DNA of 64,000 bases from Betaproteobacteria bacterium (GTDB lineage: Bacteria > Pseudomonadota > Gammaproteobacteria > Burkholderiales > Rhodocyclaceae): NCBI GenBank assembly GCA_028065725.1, contig JAPTVL010000094.1:1-64000 (forward strand). Direction: 5' to 3'. The position numbers and the translations under genes were made by a program. The notes under the pieces are model-generated. The model was given only the letters and a program-made list of their open reading frames with translations, was not told where the DNA came from and ran no database searches. Of the stretch, positions 30,798 to 34,861 are shown one piece after another. Each line of letters begins with the position of its first letter. Position 1 is the first letter of the stretch.

Positions 30798-32078
30798 TCA
30801 GGTCGACATTTCGGTCAGGATGTTCCGCAACCAGCTTTCGGCGTAGATCGCTTCCAGCTTTGCGGCCGAGAAATCAGCGGGAGATACACCGCCGGAGTTG
30901 GGCACGGCAACAATCTTGCCTTCCTTGACCGCATACACCGAGGCGACACTGACGGCATCCTTGTCGGTGATGTAGCTGTAGCAGGTGTTGATGCCCGACA
31001 GGTCGGTGATTTCCTTGCCATTCATCAGCGCCACGATGTTGGTGGCGCAGACTTTTGCTTCGGAATTGGCCGAGTAGCCGGACTTCGGCATGGCGCCGGC
31101 AACGCAGGCATCGCCGATGACATGAATGCCGGCTTGCTTGGTTGACTCGAACGTCGTCGCGTTGACCGGACACCAGTTCTTGTCGTCGCCGACGAGTCCG
31201 GCGGCAACCGCGATCTGTCCGGCGCGCTGCGGCGGAATCACGTTGATGACGTCACCCTTTACTTCCTCGATGCCCTCGACCATCACGGACATGGCTTGGG
31301 CATTGACCTCGGTAACCTTCTTTGCCGGACGATAGTTGATGATGCCTTCGTAGTTGTCCTTCCAGCCCTTCTTGAACAGACCGCCCTTGGACGTGATGTC
31401 CGGGTTGGCGTCGAGCACGATCAGCTTCGACTTCGGCTTGTTCTTCTTCAGGTAATGGGCAACCATGCTGGCGCGCTCGTAGGGTCCGGGCGGGCAGCGG
31501 TAGGGCGCCAGCGGCACGGCCATCACCATGTTGCCGCCGTCCTTCATCGCCTCCAGCTGCTTGCGCAGCAGAACGGTCTGCGGGCCGGCCTTCCAGGCGT
31601 GAGGCATTTTTTCCATGGCCGCGGCATCATAGCCCTTCATCTCCTCCAGACGGAAGTCGATGCCGGGAGAAACGATCAGGCGATCATAACTGACGGTGCC
31701 CTTCGAGGTCGTCACGACCTTGGCGGCCGGGTCGATTGCCGTGACCTCGGCCTGTACGACCTTGACGCCGTGATTCGAGGCCAGCTTGTCGTACTTGATG
31801 GTCAGCGGCGTAAGATCCTTGAGGATGCCGCCGATGTAGAGATTGCTGAAGGGGCAGGAGACGAAATGATCGTTGCGCTCGATCATCACCACTTCGATGC
31901 TCTTGTCCATCATGCGGATGTACTTGGCAGCGATGGTGCCGCCGTAACCGCCGCCGATCACTACCACACGCTTGGCGCCCTTGGGCATCAACTCGGCGGC
32001 ACGGCCGATCATCGGCAGTCCTGCGGCGCCGGCTCCTGCGCCAACCAGTTTCAGAAAGCTTCTGCGATCCAGTGTCAT
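30798..32078 (-). CDS. fccB: Flavocytochrome c sulfide dehydrogenase, flavoprotein subunit
   Basis: The 426-residue FAD protein begins with a twin-arginine signal (RRSFLKLVG at 5-13), so it folds before export to the periplasm. The Rossmann motif VVVIGGGYGG starts at 38. Three cysteines match FCSD: C75 (VSCPFSN, expected covalent 8-alpha-cysteinyl FAD), and C195 (YRCPPGPYE) with C366 (NTCYSYI), the redox pair that takes sulfur from sulfide. The family oxidises sulfide to sulfur or polysulfide and passes electrons to cytochrome c. It is the last gene of a three-gene leftward operon after the dihaem cytochrome (14 nt gap). No sox genes are nearby. A different sulfur substrate cannot be excluded. 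Confidence 0.88.
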   Translation of the reverse strand: MTLDRRSFLKLVGAGAGAAGLPMIGRAAELMPKGAKRVVVIGGGYGGTIAAKYIRMMDKSIEVVMIERNDHFVSCPFSNLYIGGILKDLTPLTIKYDKLASNHGVKVVQAEVTAIDPAAKVVTTSKGTVSYDRLIVSPGIDFRLEEMKGYDAAAMEKMPHAWKAGPQTVLLRKQLEAMKDGGNMVMAVPLAPYRCPPGPYERASMVAHYLKKNKPKSKLIVLDANPDITSKGGLFKKGWKDNYEGIINYRPAKKVTEVNAQAMSVMVEGIEEVKGDVINVIPPQRAGQIAVAAGLVGDDKNWCPVNATTFESTKQAGIHVIGDACVAGAMPKSGYSANSEAKVCATNIVALMNGKEITDLSGINTCYSYITDKDAVSVASVYAVKEGKIVAVPNSGGVSPADFSAAKLEAIYAESWLRNILTEMST

Positions 32079-32092
32079 GTCATGTCTCCCCG

Positions 32093-32671
32093 TTATTTAA
32101 CGCTGGCGTAGAAGTGCAAGAGGGCGTCGATATCTTCTTTGGACATCGGGTCGACCTTCTCCTTCATTTTTTCTGGCATCTTGCGCTTGCCCGACAGATA
32201 GTCGGCCATCTGCAGCTGCATGTAGGACAGCCACTGGCTGGCCATCACCGGGGTATCGTCCTTGCCTTCCTTGCCGTCCTCGATATGGCAGCGGCCGCAG
32301 TTGGATTCCTGCAGGCTGGCACCCTTGGCGATTTTCGCCTTGTCGAGGGTCTGCGTCGTGACGTGGAGCTTCTGCTTGGAGAAGAACTCGGCCATGGCGG
32401 TGATTTCGGCATCGCTATAAGCTTTCGCCAAGCGGCCCATGATCGATGAAGGCCTTTCCCCGCTCTTGAACTTCTTCATGGCGGCTTCAATGGCTTCCTT
32501 GGACTGGCTGGCCAGGCTGGGCATGGTCGGACCTGCGCTGCCACCGTTGGTGCCGTGACAGCCGGCGCAAGCGTTGGACAACATGGCCGGCGAAGGCGGT
32601 GCGGCCTGCGCCAGCGCGGATATTGTCAGGACGCCAGCGGCCAGCGTCCATCCTTTCCACTTCATCGTCAT
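32093..32671 (-). CDS. fccA: Dihaem c-type cytochrome, FccA-like partner of the flavoprotein
   Basis: The 192-residue periplasmic cytochrome has a signal peptide (cleavage near AQA, residue 23) and two CxxCH sites at 35-39 (CAGCH) and 125-129 (CGRCH), giving the two-domain layout of class I dihaem cytochromes c4/FccA. Two candidate axial methionines (TMPS near 50 and TPVMA near 142) are visible. A strong AGGAGGAG Shine-Dalgarno supports the ATG at 32671. It lies between the multihaem cytochrome fusion and fccB and should accept electrons from the flavoprotein. Confidence 0.85.
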
Positions 32672-32719: not shown

Positions 32720-34444
32720 TTATTGCTTTTGTACGTCTATGTAGTTCTTGACGCCGGGATTGGGCTTGTCGAGACCGAACTGGTAGCCCAGCGACACATA
32801 GTGGAAGCGGGCGTTGGTGAAGTCCTCGTGAATCGCGAAGCCGAAGTTATACACCTTATCGCCAGTAATGGCATGGTCTCCCTTGCCCCCTCCGGCCAGG
32901 TTGCGCTCGAAGATCACGACCCACTTGTTGCTTTCTTTTTTGCCTTCGGCCCTGAGCTGGCTCTTGCCACCCTGCATATGGCGTTCGCTGTCGACCCAGC
33001 CGTCGACCGGGCCTTGGCCCTTGCCGCTGCGGAACTGGATCAGGTCCATGAACTTCCCCGCAGCAAGGTCGGCGTCCTTGATGTACTTCGTCTTCTTGTC
33101 GTCCTTGGCGTCCTTCATGGTGCGCAGGTCGGTATGGCAGGTGGCCCAGCAACCATTCAGTTCGCTGCCATCGACGGTGCCGCCGCCGTCGAACATCATG
33201 GTCAGCTTGACCTCGTTCTTCGGATCCAGCTTCTTGTCGCCGTTTTTCGGCGGTACCCATTCGAAGCGGAAATAGATCTTGTTGTCGTCATGGGTTGACT
33301 GGAAAGTCACCGGAATAAAGCCGACTTTGCCAGCGGGCGGGTTTGGCTCCATCACGGTCTTGGAAACACCCACCGGCTTGCCGGCCACGATAGCGGCGCC
33401 GACTTCGTTGGCGTCGCCTTCGTGGCACTTGGCGCAGGCGCGCTTCTTCTCGATGATGTCTGCTGCGGATGAGTGGTCAGCTTTGTTCATCACCCACTCC
33501 AGACCAGCCTGACCGGGGTAGAAGACCTTGATCTGGCGTGCCGGGACCTTGCTCCAGTCCAGTGCAGTGACCGTTCCCCCGGTTGCTGCGGCCGGAGCAG
33601 CGGCACTCGCCGCCTCGGCTTTGACAGCTTCAGTCTTTGCCACATCGGCCTTCGCTGCCGGCTTGGCCGTTTCAGCGGACACGGCGGCAGGTGCAGCGGG
33701 CAATGCGACGGCGGTTGTCGGACCGGTTGCGACTTGGGCAGGTTTGTCCTCGGGTTTGGGTGCCGCGGTTGCTTCGGTTTGTGCCGGCGGCGTGGGTGCG
33801 CCTTCCTTGGAAGCAACGGCCTGACCCTGCTCCTTTTCGAGCAAATGGTGCACCGGCTTGTGGGCGATGCCCTTGTGGCAGTCGATGCAGGTCTTGCCGT
33901 CCATGACGGCGCCTTCGTGCTTGACGACGGAACGGTCCTTCTGTTTCGTCGTGTCCATCTTGTCGAACTTGTGGCAGTTGCGACATTCCTTGGAATCCGT
34001 CTCCTTCATGTGCGCCCAGACTCGCTTGGCCATGGTCAAGCGATAGGCCTCGAACTTTTCCGGCGTGTCGATGGTGCCCAGGATTTGACCGATCACATCC
34101 TTGGAGGCGAAGACTTTCTGCGTCAGCTTGCGCGCATAATCGAAAGGATCCTTGCTGCTGGCGACGTGGCAGTCGGCACAGCCGACGCTGGTGCCGGTGC
34201 GGTTGCTGTAATGCACCGTCTTCTTGAGTTCCTCGTAAGGCGTTTGCATGGTGTGGCAGGAGAGGCAGAACTCGGTGCGGTTGGTGAATTCGACGCCGGT
34301 GTTGAGCCCACCCCATATGATGATGCCCCCGATCACGCCGATAACTATCATGCGCAGCATCGAGCACTGGGGAGGGCGCTTGAGCCAACCAAAGAGGCCT
34401 TTCCCCGCCTGTGGAGGCATGCCGTCGGGTGAGTTGTCTGCCAT
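32720..34444 (-). CDS. NapC/NirT-type tetrahaem cytochrome fused to an ethylbenzene-dehydrogenase-gamma-like haem domain
   Basis: A 574-residue membrane-anchored periplasmic multihaem protein. A signal-anchor helix (about 29-46) precedes four CxxCH sites at 60, 89, 154 and 186, the NapC/NirT/NrfH arrangement that exchanges electrons with the quinone pool. A Pro/Ala/Lys-rich linker runs from about 211 to 292. The C-terminal half has a fifth CxxCH (CAKCH at 337) and an unusual C-x3-CH (CWATCH at 432-437), followed by a beta-rich region like the DMSO-reductase/EBDH gamma haem-binding family (PF09459-type). The ATG at 34444 is preferred, with GGGAAGA just upstream. It is first in the operon with fccA and fccB, so it probably links that flavocytochrome to quinone or another membrane carrier. 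Substrate and direction of electron flow are unknown. Confidence 0.82.
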   Translation of the reverse strand: MADNSPDGMPPQAGKGLFGWLKRPPQCSMLRMIVIGVIGGIIIWGGLNTGVEFTNRTEFCLSCHTMQTPYEELKKTVHYSNRTGTSVGCADCHVASSKDPFDYARKLTQKVFASKDVIGQILGTIDTPEKFEAYRLTMAKRVWAHMKETDSKECRNCHKFDKMDTTKQKDRSVVKHEGAVMDGKTCIDCHKGIAHKPVHHLLEKEQGQAVASKEGAPTPPAQTEATAAPKPEDKPAQVATGPTTAVALPAAPAAVSAETAKPAAKADVAKTEAVKAEAASAAAPAAATGGTVTALDWSKVPARQIKVFYPGQAGLEWVMNKADHSSAADIIEKKRACAKCHEGDANEVGAAIVAGKPVGVSKTVMEPNPPAGKVGFIPVTFQSTHDDNKIYFRFEWVPPKNGDKKLDPKNEVKLTMMFDGGGTVDGSELNGCWATCHTDLRTMKDAKDDKKTKYIKDADLAAGKFMDLIQFRSGKGQGPVDGWVDSERHMQGGKSQLRAEGKKESNKWVVIFERNLAGGGKGDHAITGDKVYNFGFAIHEDFTNARFHYVSLGYQFGLDKPNPGVKNYIDVQKQ

Positions 34445-34501
34445 TTGTCTTCCCAATTAATACGATATTACGAGTGGCCGGAGCGAACATCCGGCTGCTA
34501 T

Positions 34502-34515
34502 GTCTTATAAAAGAC
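34502..34515. promoter_or_regulatory. Operator-like palindrome upstream of the cytochrome/flavocytochrome operon
   Basis: GTCTTATAAAAGAC has inverted GTCTT/AAGAC half-sites separated by 4 nt. It lies 58-71 nt before the ATG of the leftward multihaem cytochrome gene. The same half-sites occur twice before aceA (39905-39922 and 40016-40029). A GntR-like dimer is a plausible binder, by inference. Confidence 0.5.
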
Positions 34516-34784
34516 TGCTTCGTTCACTACGAGATCGGACCGGCGCTGCGCGTAGGCAATGCGACGGCGCGAGTTTCGCCAGTGTGCTGCAGAGGATCTC
34601 CCCGAATTGTCCGGTTTTGGACTATGGTTTTTCGCGCGATTATTGCAGGACCGTCGATTCCCGTAAAATGATTATTGTGATTAGTGGATCAAGCTGGCTT
34701 TTAACAGGAAGCGCTAATCCAGCACACGGCTTCAAGCCTGTTTTTGCAGGCATTCGAACTCAGGCAAAGCGTCCTTCAGAAACA

Positions 34785-34841
34785 GGAACGGCGCTCCGCA
34801 GAGCGCCGTTCCGCCGGCGCCGACTATGCGGCCGGCGCCGG
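34785..34841 (-). terminator. Two tandem GC-rich hairpins downstream of aceB
   Basis: GGAACGGCGCTC/GAGCGCCGTTCC pair around CGCA (34785-34812), directly followed by CCGGCGCCG/CGGCGCCGG around a 10-nt loop (34814-34841). They start about 20 nt past the aceB stop on its strand. Neither has a convincing T run, so they may be a weak or Rho-assisted terminator or an RNA-stabilising element. Confidence 0.45.
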
Positions 34842-34861
34842 GATGAGTTCCGTGTGAAAAC

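What the first reader, a model, noticed from the sequence alone, without database searches (positions are those of the whole stretch)
32720..34444. NapC/NirT tetrahaem module fused to an EBDH-gamma-like haem domain
One polypeptide joins a membrane-anchored four-haem quinone-interacting domain (CxxCH at 60, 89, 154, 186) through a Pro/Ala/Lys-rich linker (about 211-292) to a second periplasmic domain with two more haem-type motifs and a beta-rich fold like the DMSO-reductase/ethylbenzene-dehydrogenase gamma family. NapC proteins normally stand alone. I do not recognise a characterised protein with this layout, so it may be a new electron conduit.
Basis: partly seen in the sequence, partly recalled or inferred. 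Interest (0 to 1): 0.72.

Follow-up and report, generated by a model that had tools for sequence, protein, structure and literature searches.

The report
Fused NirT–NirB cytochrome wired to FccAB
A membrane cytochrome that usually helps denitrifying bacteria has its two parts joined in one protein here, and its gene sits in an operon with a sulfide-oxidising enzyme, so it probably carries electrons between sulfide and the membrane's quinone pool.

Summary
In detail: one intact 574-aa ORF joins a NapC/NirT tetrahaem module to an EB_dh domain with a CxxCH and a CX3CH motif and the EBDH-gamma/NXR fold. The layout is not new: it is NirT fused to the dihaem cytochrome NirB, and 'fused NirTB' is in print (PMC13086519, passages). 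Relatives with this fusion sit directly behind nirS. Of 51 related loci 48 keep this order; 3 run off their contigs. NirT and NirB are separate adjacent genes in 32 of the 51, fused in 17, undecided in 2. fcc-linked copies form one clade apart from nir-linked ones. One 3.8 Mb contig carries both kinds, 1.57 Mb apart. Best reading: an fcc-specialised NirTB linking FCSD to the quinone pool, probably reducing quinone. The genetic link is strong; direction is inferred. Four literature searches in an open-licence library found no NirTB–FCSD pairing.

The parts
32720..34444 (-). nirT-nirB fusion gene, 574 aa (ATG at 34444; stop included)
33851..34366 (-). NapC/NirT domain (residues 27-198), four CxxCH, N-terminal hydrophobic anchor; Met66, Lys110, Asp116 conserved
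   Evidence: Pfam E 3.1e-63; conservation; alignment to NrfH
33566..33826 (-). Ala/Pro/Thr/Lys-rich linker (residues 207-293)
32792..33559 (-). EB_dh / NirB (cytochrome c-552) domain (residues 296-551), CAKCH at 337 and CX3CH CWATCH at 432
   Evidence: Pfam E 1.8e-27; fold; motifs
32093..32671 (-). fccA: dihaem cytochrome subunit of flavocytochrome c sulfide dehydrogenase, 192 aa
   Evidence: best solved relatives are FCSD haem subunits 3vrd_A (3e-41) and 1fcd_C (1.9e-37), ahead of 1h1o_A cytochrome c-552 (6.1e-17) and cytochrome c4 6q2u_A (4.3e-12)
30798..32078 (-). fccB: FCSD flavoprotein, 426 aa, with a TAT-type start; flavin-link Cys75 and redox pair Cys195/Cys366 (roles recalled from Allochromatium FCSD)
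   Evidence: Pfam FCSD_central 9.1e-47 and FCSD-flav_bind 1.6e-19; 5n1t_A 5e-125, 1fcd_A 3.6e-109; TAT model; cysteines
34445..34861 (-). intergenic region between the malate synthase gene and the operon: terminator-like hairpin 34812-34785, promoter-like site 34667-34639
   Evidence: consensus scan only; 2 promoter-like and 8 terminator-like sites in the stretch scanned against 1.1 and 5.7 expected, so near chance

Best explanation
The protein is a hexahaem NirTB: a membrane-anchored, quinone-interacting NirT (tetrahaem) fused by a flexible linker to the periplasmic dihaem cytochrome NirB (EB_dh fold). It belongs to a branch of NirTB that is encoded not with nitrite reductase NirS but with flavocytochrome c sulfide dehydrogenase, FccAB, in one operon. 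Proposed route: sulfide reduces the FAD of FccB; electrons pass to the FccA haems, to the NirB domain tethered near the membrane, through the four NirT haems, and onto the quinone pool. FCSD would then act as a periplasmic sulfide:quinone reductase, not only as a sulfide:cytochrome c reductase. Shown here: domains, haem motifs, conserved catalytic and quinol-site residues, operon, the clade and its separation from nir-linked copies. Inferred: haem occupancy, physical partnership with FccAB, order of haems and direction of flow.
For: Of 51 loci with NirT-NirB sequence, 48 have fccA and fccB next downstream and 3 end at a contig edge. fcc-linked EB domains are one clade (57 rows, SH-aLRT 100), and the NirT domains too need only one context change, so both halves moved together. 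FccB keeps the flavin-link Cys and both redox Cys in 56 of 57 aligned rows, the other having gaps there. NirT keeps Met66 and Lys110 in 49 of 49 rows and Asp/Glu116 (47 D, 2 E); Lys110 and Asp116 fall on NrfH Lys82 and Asp89 (quinol-site role recalled). Of 9 carrier genomes whose nir cluster I read, 6 have their own NirT and NirB there and 3 a NirB alone, and so does G477 with both; 8 of 47 carriers have no Cytochrom_D1 match better than 1e-9. So the fcc-linked copy is not simply the nir copy. Carriers look like sulfur oxidisers by gene content: dsrA in 39 of 47, soxB in 44 of 47. In a family sample 47 of 199 genomes have dsrA and 27 of those 47 are carriers, against about 62 of 395 in the family. 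Precedents for NapC-family quinone reduction: CymA has intrinsic quinone reductase activity (PMC6295460, passages); cM552 'a ubiquinone reductase' (title in the reference list of PMC3772326).
Against: No biochemistry. NapC-family proteins usually oxidise quinol. FCSD is commoner than NirTB-FccAB (FCSD_central in 257 of 395 family genomes; fcc-type NirB by score in 61 of 395), so FCSD does not need NirTB. In 11 of 47 carriers the fcc-linked NirB is the only match, and five of these (G008, G012, G026, G042, G043) have strong Cytochrom_D1 matches: there the fcc-linked copy could also serve nitrite reduction. Operon linkage does not fix direction. Many carriers are incomplete MAGs.
Confidence: 0.6

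Rival explanations
1. Quinol-oxidising direction: NirTB takes electrons from quinol (bypassing bc1) and hands them to FccA as a periplasmic hub, or to NirS or oxidases, as the annotation 'denitrification system component' implies. FccB feeds the same hub from sulfide.
For: NirT is needed for nitrite reduction in strain ZoBell, and NirTB is nirS-linked in other clades (PMC13086519, passages). 42 of 47 carriers have a Cytochrom_D1 match, though that profile also catches NirN and NirF. Five carriers with strong Cytochrom_D1 matches have no second NirB, and three nir clusters read have NirB without NirT.
Against: 6 of 9 nir clusters read in carriers, and G477, have their own NirT and NirB. Eight carriers lack a Cytochrom_D1 match better than 1e-9. 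FCSD haem potential (about +15 mV, recalled) lies below ubiquinone (about +90 to +110 mV, recalled), which favours flow towards quinone.
Confidence: 0.25
2. The complex runs backwards: quinol electrons pass through NirTB and FccA to FccB, which reduces sulfur or polysulfide.
For: The chain is a set of redox carriers in one operon and redox carriers are reversible in principle.
Against: Carriers hold dsrA and soxB as sulfur oxidisers do (whether the dsrA is of the oxidative type was not tested). Sulfur/sulfide (about -270 mV, recalled) is far below quinone.
Confidence: 0.07
3. It is a gamma subunit of an unrecognised molybdenum enzyme of the ethylbenzene/DMS dehydrogenase type, tethered to a NapC module.
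For: EB_dh Pfam match and 2ivf_C among the two top folds.
Against: Two haem-c-type motifs (EBDH gamma has haem b and none, recalled); the operon partners are FccA and FccB; the relatives are nirS- or fcc-linked.
Confidence: 0.03
4. Two genes joined by a sequencing or assembly error.
For: Many relatives are split (32 of 51).
Against: 17 of 51 loci are fused in frame, linkers of the fcc-linked fusions read vary from 47 to 92 aa, and one fusion lies in a single 3.8 Mb contig.
Confidence: 0.01

Closest known systems
NirT + NirB (cytochrome c-552) of nirSTB clusters, and fused NirTB (Stutzerimonas; Halomonas sp. 2A; PMC13086519, passages)
   Same: Same two modules in the same order, tetrahaem plus dihaem, split or fused; in P. 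stutzeri RCH2 Psest_0817, two locus numbers after NirS, is labelled 'Ethylbenzene dehydrogenase' (PMC5554334, passages)
   Different: Known ones follow nirS; this one precedes fccA-fccB and falls in a separate clade. No P. stutzeri NirB sequence was compared here
Flavocytochrome c sulfide dehydrogenase FccAB (1fcd, 3vrd)
   Same: Both subunits present, with the three key cysteines of FccB and two CxxCH in FccA
   Different: The classical fcc operon (recalled) has no NapC-type quinone partner
TorC/DorC pentahaem cytochromes
   Same: NapC-like tetrahaem module with a C-terminal haem extension (recalled)
   Different: NCBIfam torC matches only the NapC part, 211.1 bits against a cut-off of 478.2; the C-terminal domain is EB_dh
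Ethylbenzene dehydrogenase gamma subunit (2ivf_C) and Kuenenia NXR subunit (7b04_C)
   Different: No molybdoenzyme gene in the operon; two haem-c-type motifs
HAO/c554/cM552 route of ammonia oxidisers
   Same: Works like: periplasmic dehydrogenase, then c-type cytochrome, then NapC-family quinone reductase (PMC3772326, passages; route partly recalled)
   Different: Different dehydrogenase and intermediate cytochrome; analogy only

Membership tests
NapC/NirT family | Cytochrom_NNT domain with four CxxCH | tested here: met
   PF03264 E 3.1e-63; four CxxCH
NapC/NirT family | N-terminal membrane anchor | tested here: inconclusive
   hydrophobic stretch seen by eye and helix 29-61 in a low-confidence model; no topology prediction run
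NapC/NirT family | quinol-site residues (NrfH Lys82, Asp89; roles recalled) | tested here: met
   Lys110 49 of 49; residue 116 47 Asp and 2 Glu of 49; aligned
NirB / cytochrome c-552 (EB_dh) | EB_dh domain over the Pfam cut-off | tested here: met
   97.3 bits, cut-off 33.3; nir-linked and split relatives P0240, P0241, P0130 also match
NirB / cytochrome c-552 (EB_dh) | two haem-attachment motifs | tested here: met
   CxxCH and CX3CH both in 102 of 103 tree rows; L129 is cut by its contig end. Haem attachment at CX3CH untested
NirTB of nirS clusters | gene directly downstream of nirS | tested here: not met
   neighbours are fccA, fccB and malate synthase; none of 15 nir/nor/nap-cluster query proteins hits the 64 kb at E 1e-4
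NirTB of nirS clusters | falls inside the nir-linked clade | tested here: not met
   fcc clade of 57 rows, SH-aLRT 100; one context change
Flavocytochrome c sulfide dehydrogenase (neighbour genes) | FccB flavin-link Cys and redox Cys pair; dihaem FccA | tested here: met
   FccA two CxxCH in 57 of 57 rows
Flavocytochrome c sulfide dehydrogenase (neighbour genes) | sulfide oxidation activity | not testable with these tools
   needs protein
EBDH/DMSDH gamma subunit | partner molybdoenzyme alpha/beta subunits in the operon | tested here: not met
   operon is fusion-fccA-fccB; the next genes, dut and coaBC by Pfam, run the other way
TorC pentahaem cytochrome | full-length torC model match | tested here: not met
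   residues 23-196 only, 211.1 bits against 478.2

The most novel reading that the evidence does not exclude
A conserved NirTB-FccAB module is a second kind of periplasmic sulfide:quinone oxidoreductase: NirTB, shared with denitrification clusters, turns cytochrome-c-linked FCSD into an enzyme that feeds the quinone pool, gaining a bc1 coupling site and easing reverse electron flow in sulfur-oxidising Rhodocyclales and their kin.
Probability: 0.45. Interest if true: 0.72.

Novelty: new variant of a known kind. Interest (0 to 1): 0.5.

Why it matters
Why bacteria keep FCSD beside SQR, and where its electrons go, is an old question (recalled). A fixed operon with a quinone-interacting partner gives a concrete, testable answer for one lineage. 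It shows NirTB as a portable conduit used outside nir clusters, which bears on the puzzle of NirB in Rhodocyclus species that lack nitrite reductase ('deserves further study', PMC8954225, passages). It also warns that automatic annotation as a denitrification component may mislead for this clade.

Tried and rejected
Full-length AlphaFold model (A3, 15 close sequences): mean pLDDT 40.5, not used for fold searches. Sequence search of the C-terminal half against PDB: no hit up to E 10. FNR-type box near the operon: none in its upstream region; 3 one-mismatch sites in the window, and 18 of the 100 shuffles reach that. A single origin of all fusions: AU p 0.049, so two origins are favoured only marginally; the NirT tree does not hold the fcc fusions together (6 changes). 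A text-pattern count of FccB cysteines (56, 55 and 34 of 57) was too narrow and was replaced by the alignment. Idea that NirB of photosynthetic genomes sits in an fcc operon: 14 of 395 family genomes have Photo_RC, 4 of these match A1 at 1e-40; three of the four (L115-L119) have NirT+NirB with no fcc or nir gene found within 12 kb, the fourth, G037, carries the fcc-linked copy (L039). Early reading that the downstream ORFs of 276 and 426 aa belong to the operon: rejected, no family; they lie opposite dut and coaBC.

Papers: passages only of PMC13086519, PMC5554334, PMC8954225, PMC5845722, PMC5728499, PMC6295460, PMC3772326, PMC4288042 and PMC10305379. The papers listed and PMC5953540 were seen as listings only.

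Rows left out before the tree: fragments L029, L030, L036, L050, L051; loci without an EB domain L052-L056 and L059; nirS-only loci L060-L067; duplicate or short loci L068, L100, L108-L114. L131-L133 were fetched later.

Full report
Observation. The reported gene is real and intact. It reads as one frame of 574 aa from ATG 34444 to 32720 on the minus strand. It has a NapC/NirT domain at 27-198 and an EB_dh domain at 296-551, both over Pfam's cut-offs. Haem motifs are CxxCH at 60, 89, 154, 186 and 337 and CX3CH (CWATCH) at 432. In the EB domain both motifs are kept in 53 of 54 rows (L036 is a fragment) and in 102 of 103 rows of the tree set (L129 is cut by its contig).

Split and fused. The genome collection returned 56 loci; 51 (L001-L051) hold the NirB part and five only a NapC-type domain. 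Of the 51, 17 are fused, 32 have NirT and NirB as adjacent genes in the same order, and 2 start inside the NirB part. The pair corresponds to nirT-nirB: in Stutzerimonas NirT is a tetrahaem and NirB a dihaem cytochrome whose genes lie immediately downstream of nirS, and fused NirTB is reported for Halomonas sp. 2A (PMC13086519, passages). In P. stutzeri RCH2, Psest_0815 is NirS and Psest_0817 is labelled ethylbenzene dehydrogenase (PMC5554334, passages). In the class of the nearest relative's genome, 40 of 369 genomes match the EB profile at E 1e-10. Of the 29 loci fetched from them besides G001's (L069-L097), 22 are NapC-EB fusions, 4 are split and 3 show no NirT in the stretch held; 19 of the 22 fusions have a nirS piece just upstream and the other three (L083, L086, L088) begin at a contig edge. 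Plasmid records of Azospirillum and Ruegeria show the fusion after a cytochrome D1 protein. So the layout itself is known.

The operon. In the window the fusion is followed after 48 bp by a dihaem cytochrome and after a further 14 bp by an FCSD flavoprotein. Their best solved relatives are the FCSD haem subunit (3vrd_A 3e-41) and flavin subunit (5n1t_A 5e-125; 1fcd_A 3.6e-109). Of the 51 loci, 48 have both genes next downstream; L029, L036 and L050 run off their contigs. The three key FccB cysteines are kept in 56 of 57 aligned rows, one row having gaps there. Outside lie housekeeping genes: malate synthase upstream, dut and coaBC convergent downstream, a setting shared by a good part of the relatives, by clustering of mechanical ORFs (coaBC cluster in 31 and dut cluster in 23 of the 57 stretches compared).

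Two NirTB systems in one cell. Ten regions of nine carrier genomes were fetched around nirS. All nine nir clusters hold a NirB-type gene, six with an adjacent NirT and three (L102, L104, L107) without. In G477, one contig of 3,802,648 bases (the contig length given for the S. hydrogenivorans proteins P0015 and P0036), the fused gene with fccAB lies at 1.10 Mb (L128) and split nirS-nirT-nirB-azurin-nirF at 2.68 Mb. Whole-genome searches covered 47 genomes that hold 48 of the 51 loci. Cytochrom_D1 is matched in 42 of 47, but in three of these only at 7e-10 to 1e-6 (G041, G046, G047), so 8 of 47 show nothing better than 1e-9; the profile also catches NirN and NirF, so true nirS carriers may be fewer than 39. 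Against a clean division of labour, 11 of 47 have no second NirB match, five of them with strong Cytochrom_D1 matches. MAG gaps may explain part of both.

Trees. In a quick ML tree of 103 EB domains (SH-aLRT only; the tool flags several long branches) the fcc-linked ones are one clade (57 rows, SH-aLRT 100) holding the window; context needs one change, 12 'other' rows not counted, and fusion two. Twenty fcc fusions form one group (94), apart from the nir fusions. Holding all 44 fusions together costs 66 log units, but AU p is 0.049, so independent fusion is favoured, not proven. The NirT tree also needs one context change but does not recover the fcc fusions as a group.

Biology of carriers. 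soxB is matched in 44 of 47 (42 over the cut-off) and dsrA in 39 of 47 (37 over the cut-off) carrier genomes; no background for soxB was measured. In a 199-genome family sample 47 have dsrA; 27 of those 47 are carriers, 26 by score (61 of 395 genomes with at least 405 bits) and G566 by its locus L129. At least one carrier in the sample, G019, has no dsrA. Kinship among carriers inflates the contrast. FCSD itself is commoner (257 of 395). fcc-type was assigned by score except for loci read.

Mechanism. NirT keeps Met66 (next to the first CxxCH) and the Lys110/Asp116 pair that aligns with NrfH Lys82/Asp89. With FccAB complete, the economical model is sulfide, FccB FAD, FccA, NirB domain, NirT, quinone. 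Direction rests on recalled potentials and on precedents: CymA with intrinsic quinone reductase activity (PMC6295460, passages), cM552 'a ubiquinone reductase' (title in the reference list of PMC3772326). Fusion would tether NirB at the membrane; the frequent split form shows it is not essential.

Novelty. The fused architecture is known. The FCSD-linked clade was not found in four searches of an open-licence library: one search returned no paper, and the passages read's three papers treat FCSD and NapC/NirT apart; the other hits were seen as listings. Subscription papers are missing. I therefore file it as a new variant of a known kind.

Noticed in passing
L070, L077, L081, L083, L086: Proteins with two tandem EB_dh domains after one NapC domain (L070 with part of a third): eight haem motifs in the three read whole (L070, L077, L081), which have nirS upstream; L083 and L086 are cut by contig edges.
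   Followed up: no
L115-L119: Three Photo_RC-bearing genomes carry NirT+NirB pairs with no nir or fcc gene found within the 12 kb held; NirT's first haem motif is CX3CH instead of CxxCH.
   Followed up: partly
L102, L104, L107: nirS clusters with a NirB-type gene but no adjacent NirT; the same genomes have the fcc-linked NirT, which might serve both.
   Followed up: no
L040:5536-7354, L050:94-1631, L034:11821-12942, L026:11712-12926: Second fccA/fccB set divergent from the operon (L040, L050) or an extra FccB-like gene downstream (L034, L026).
   Followed up: no
EB domain of the family; window residue 432: Second haem motif is CX3CH (CWxxCH with one more residue, e.g. CWATCH) in 102 of 103 rows, an unusual spacing whose haem attachment is untested.
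   Followed up: partly
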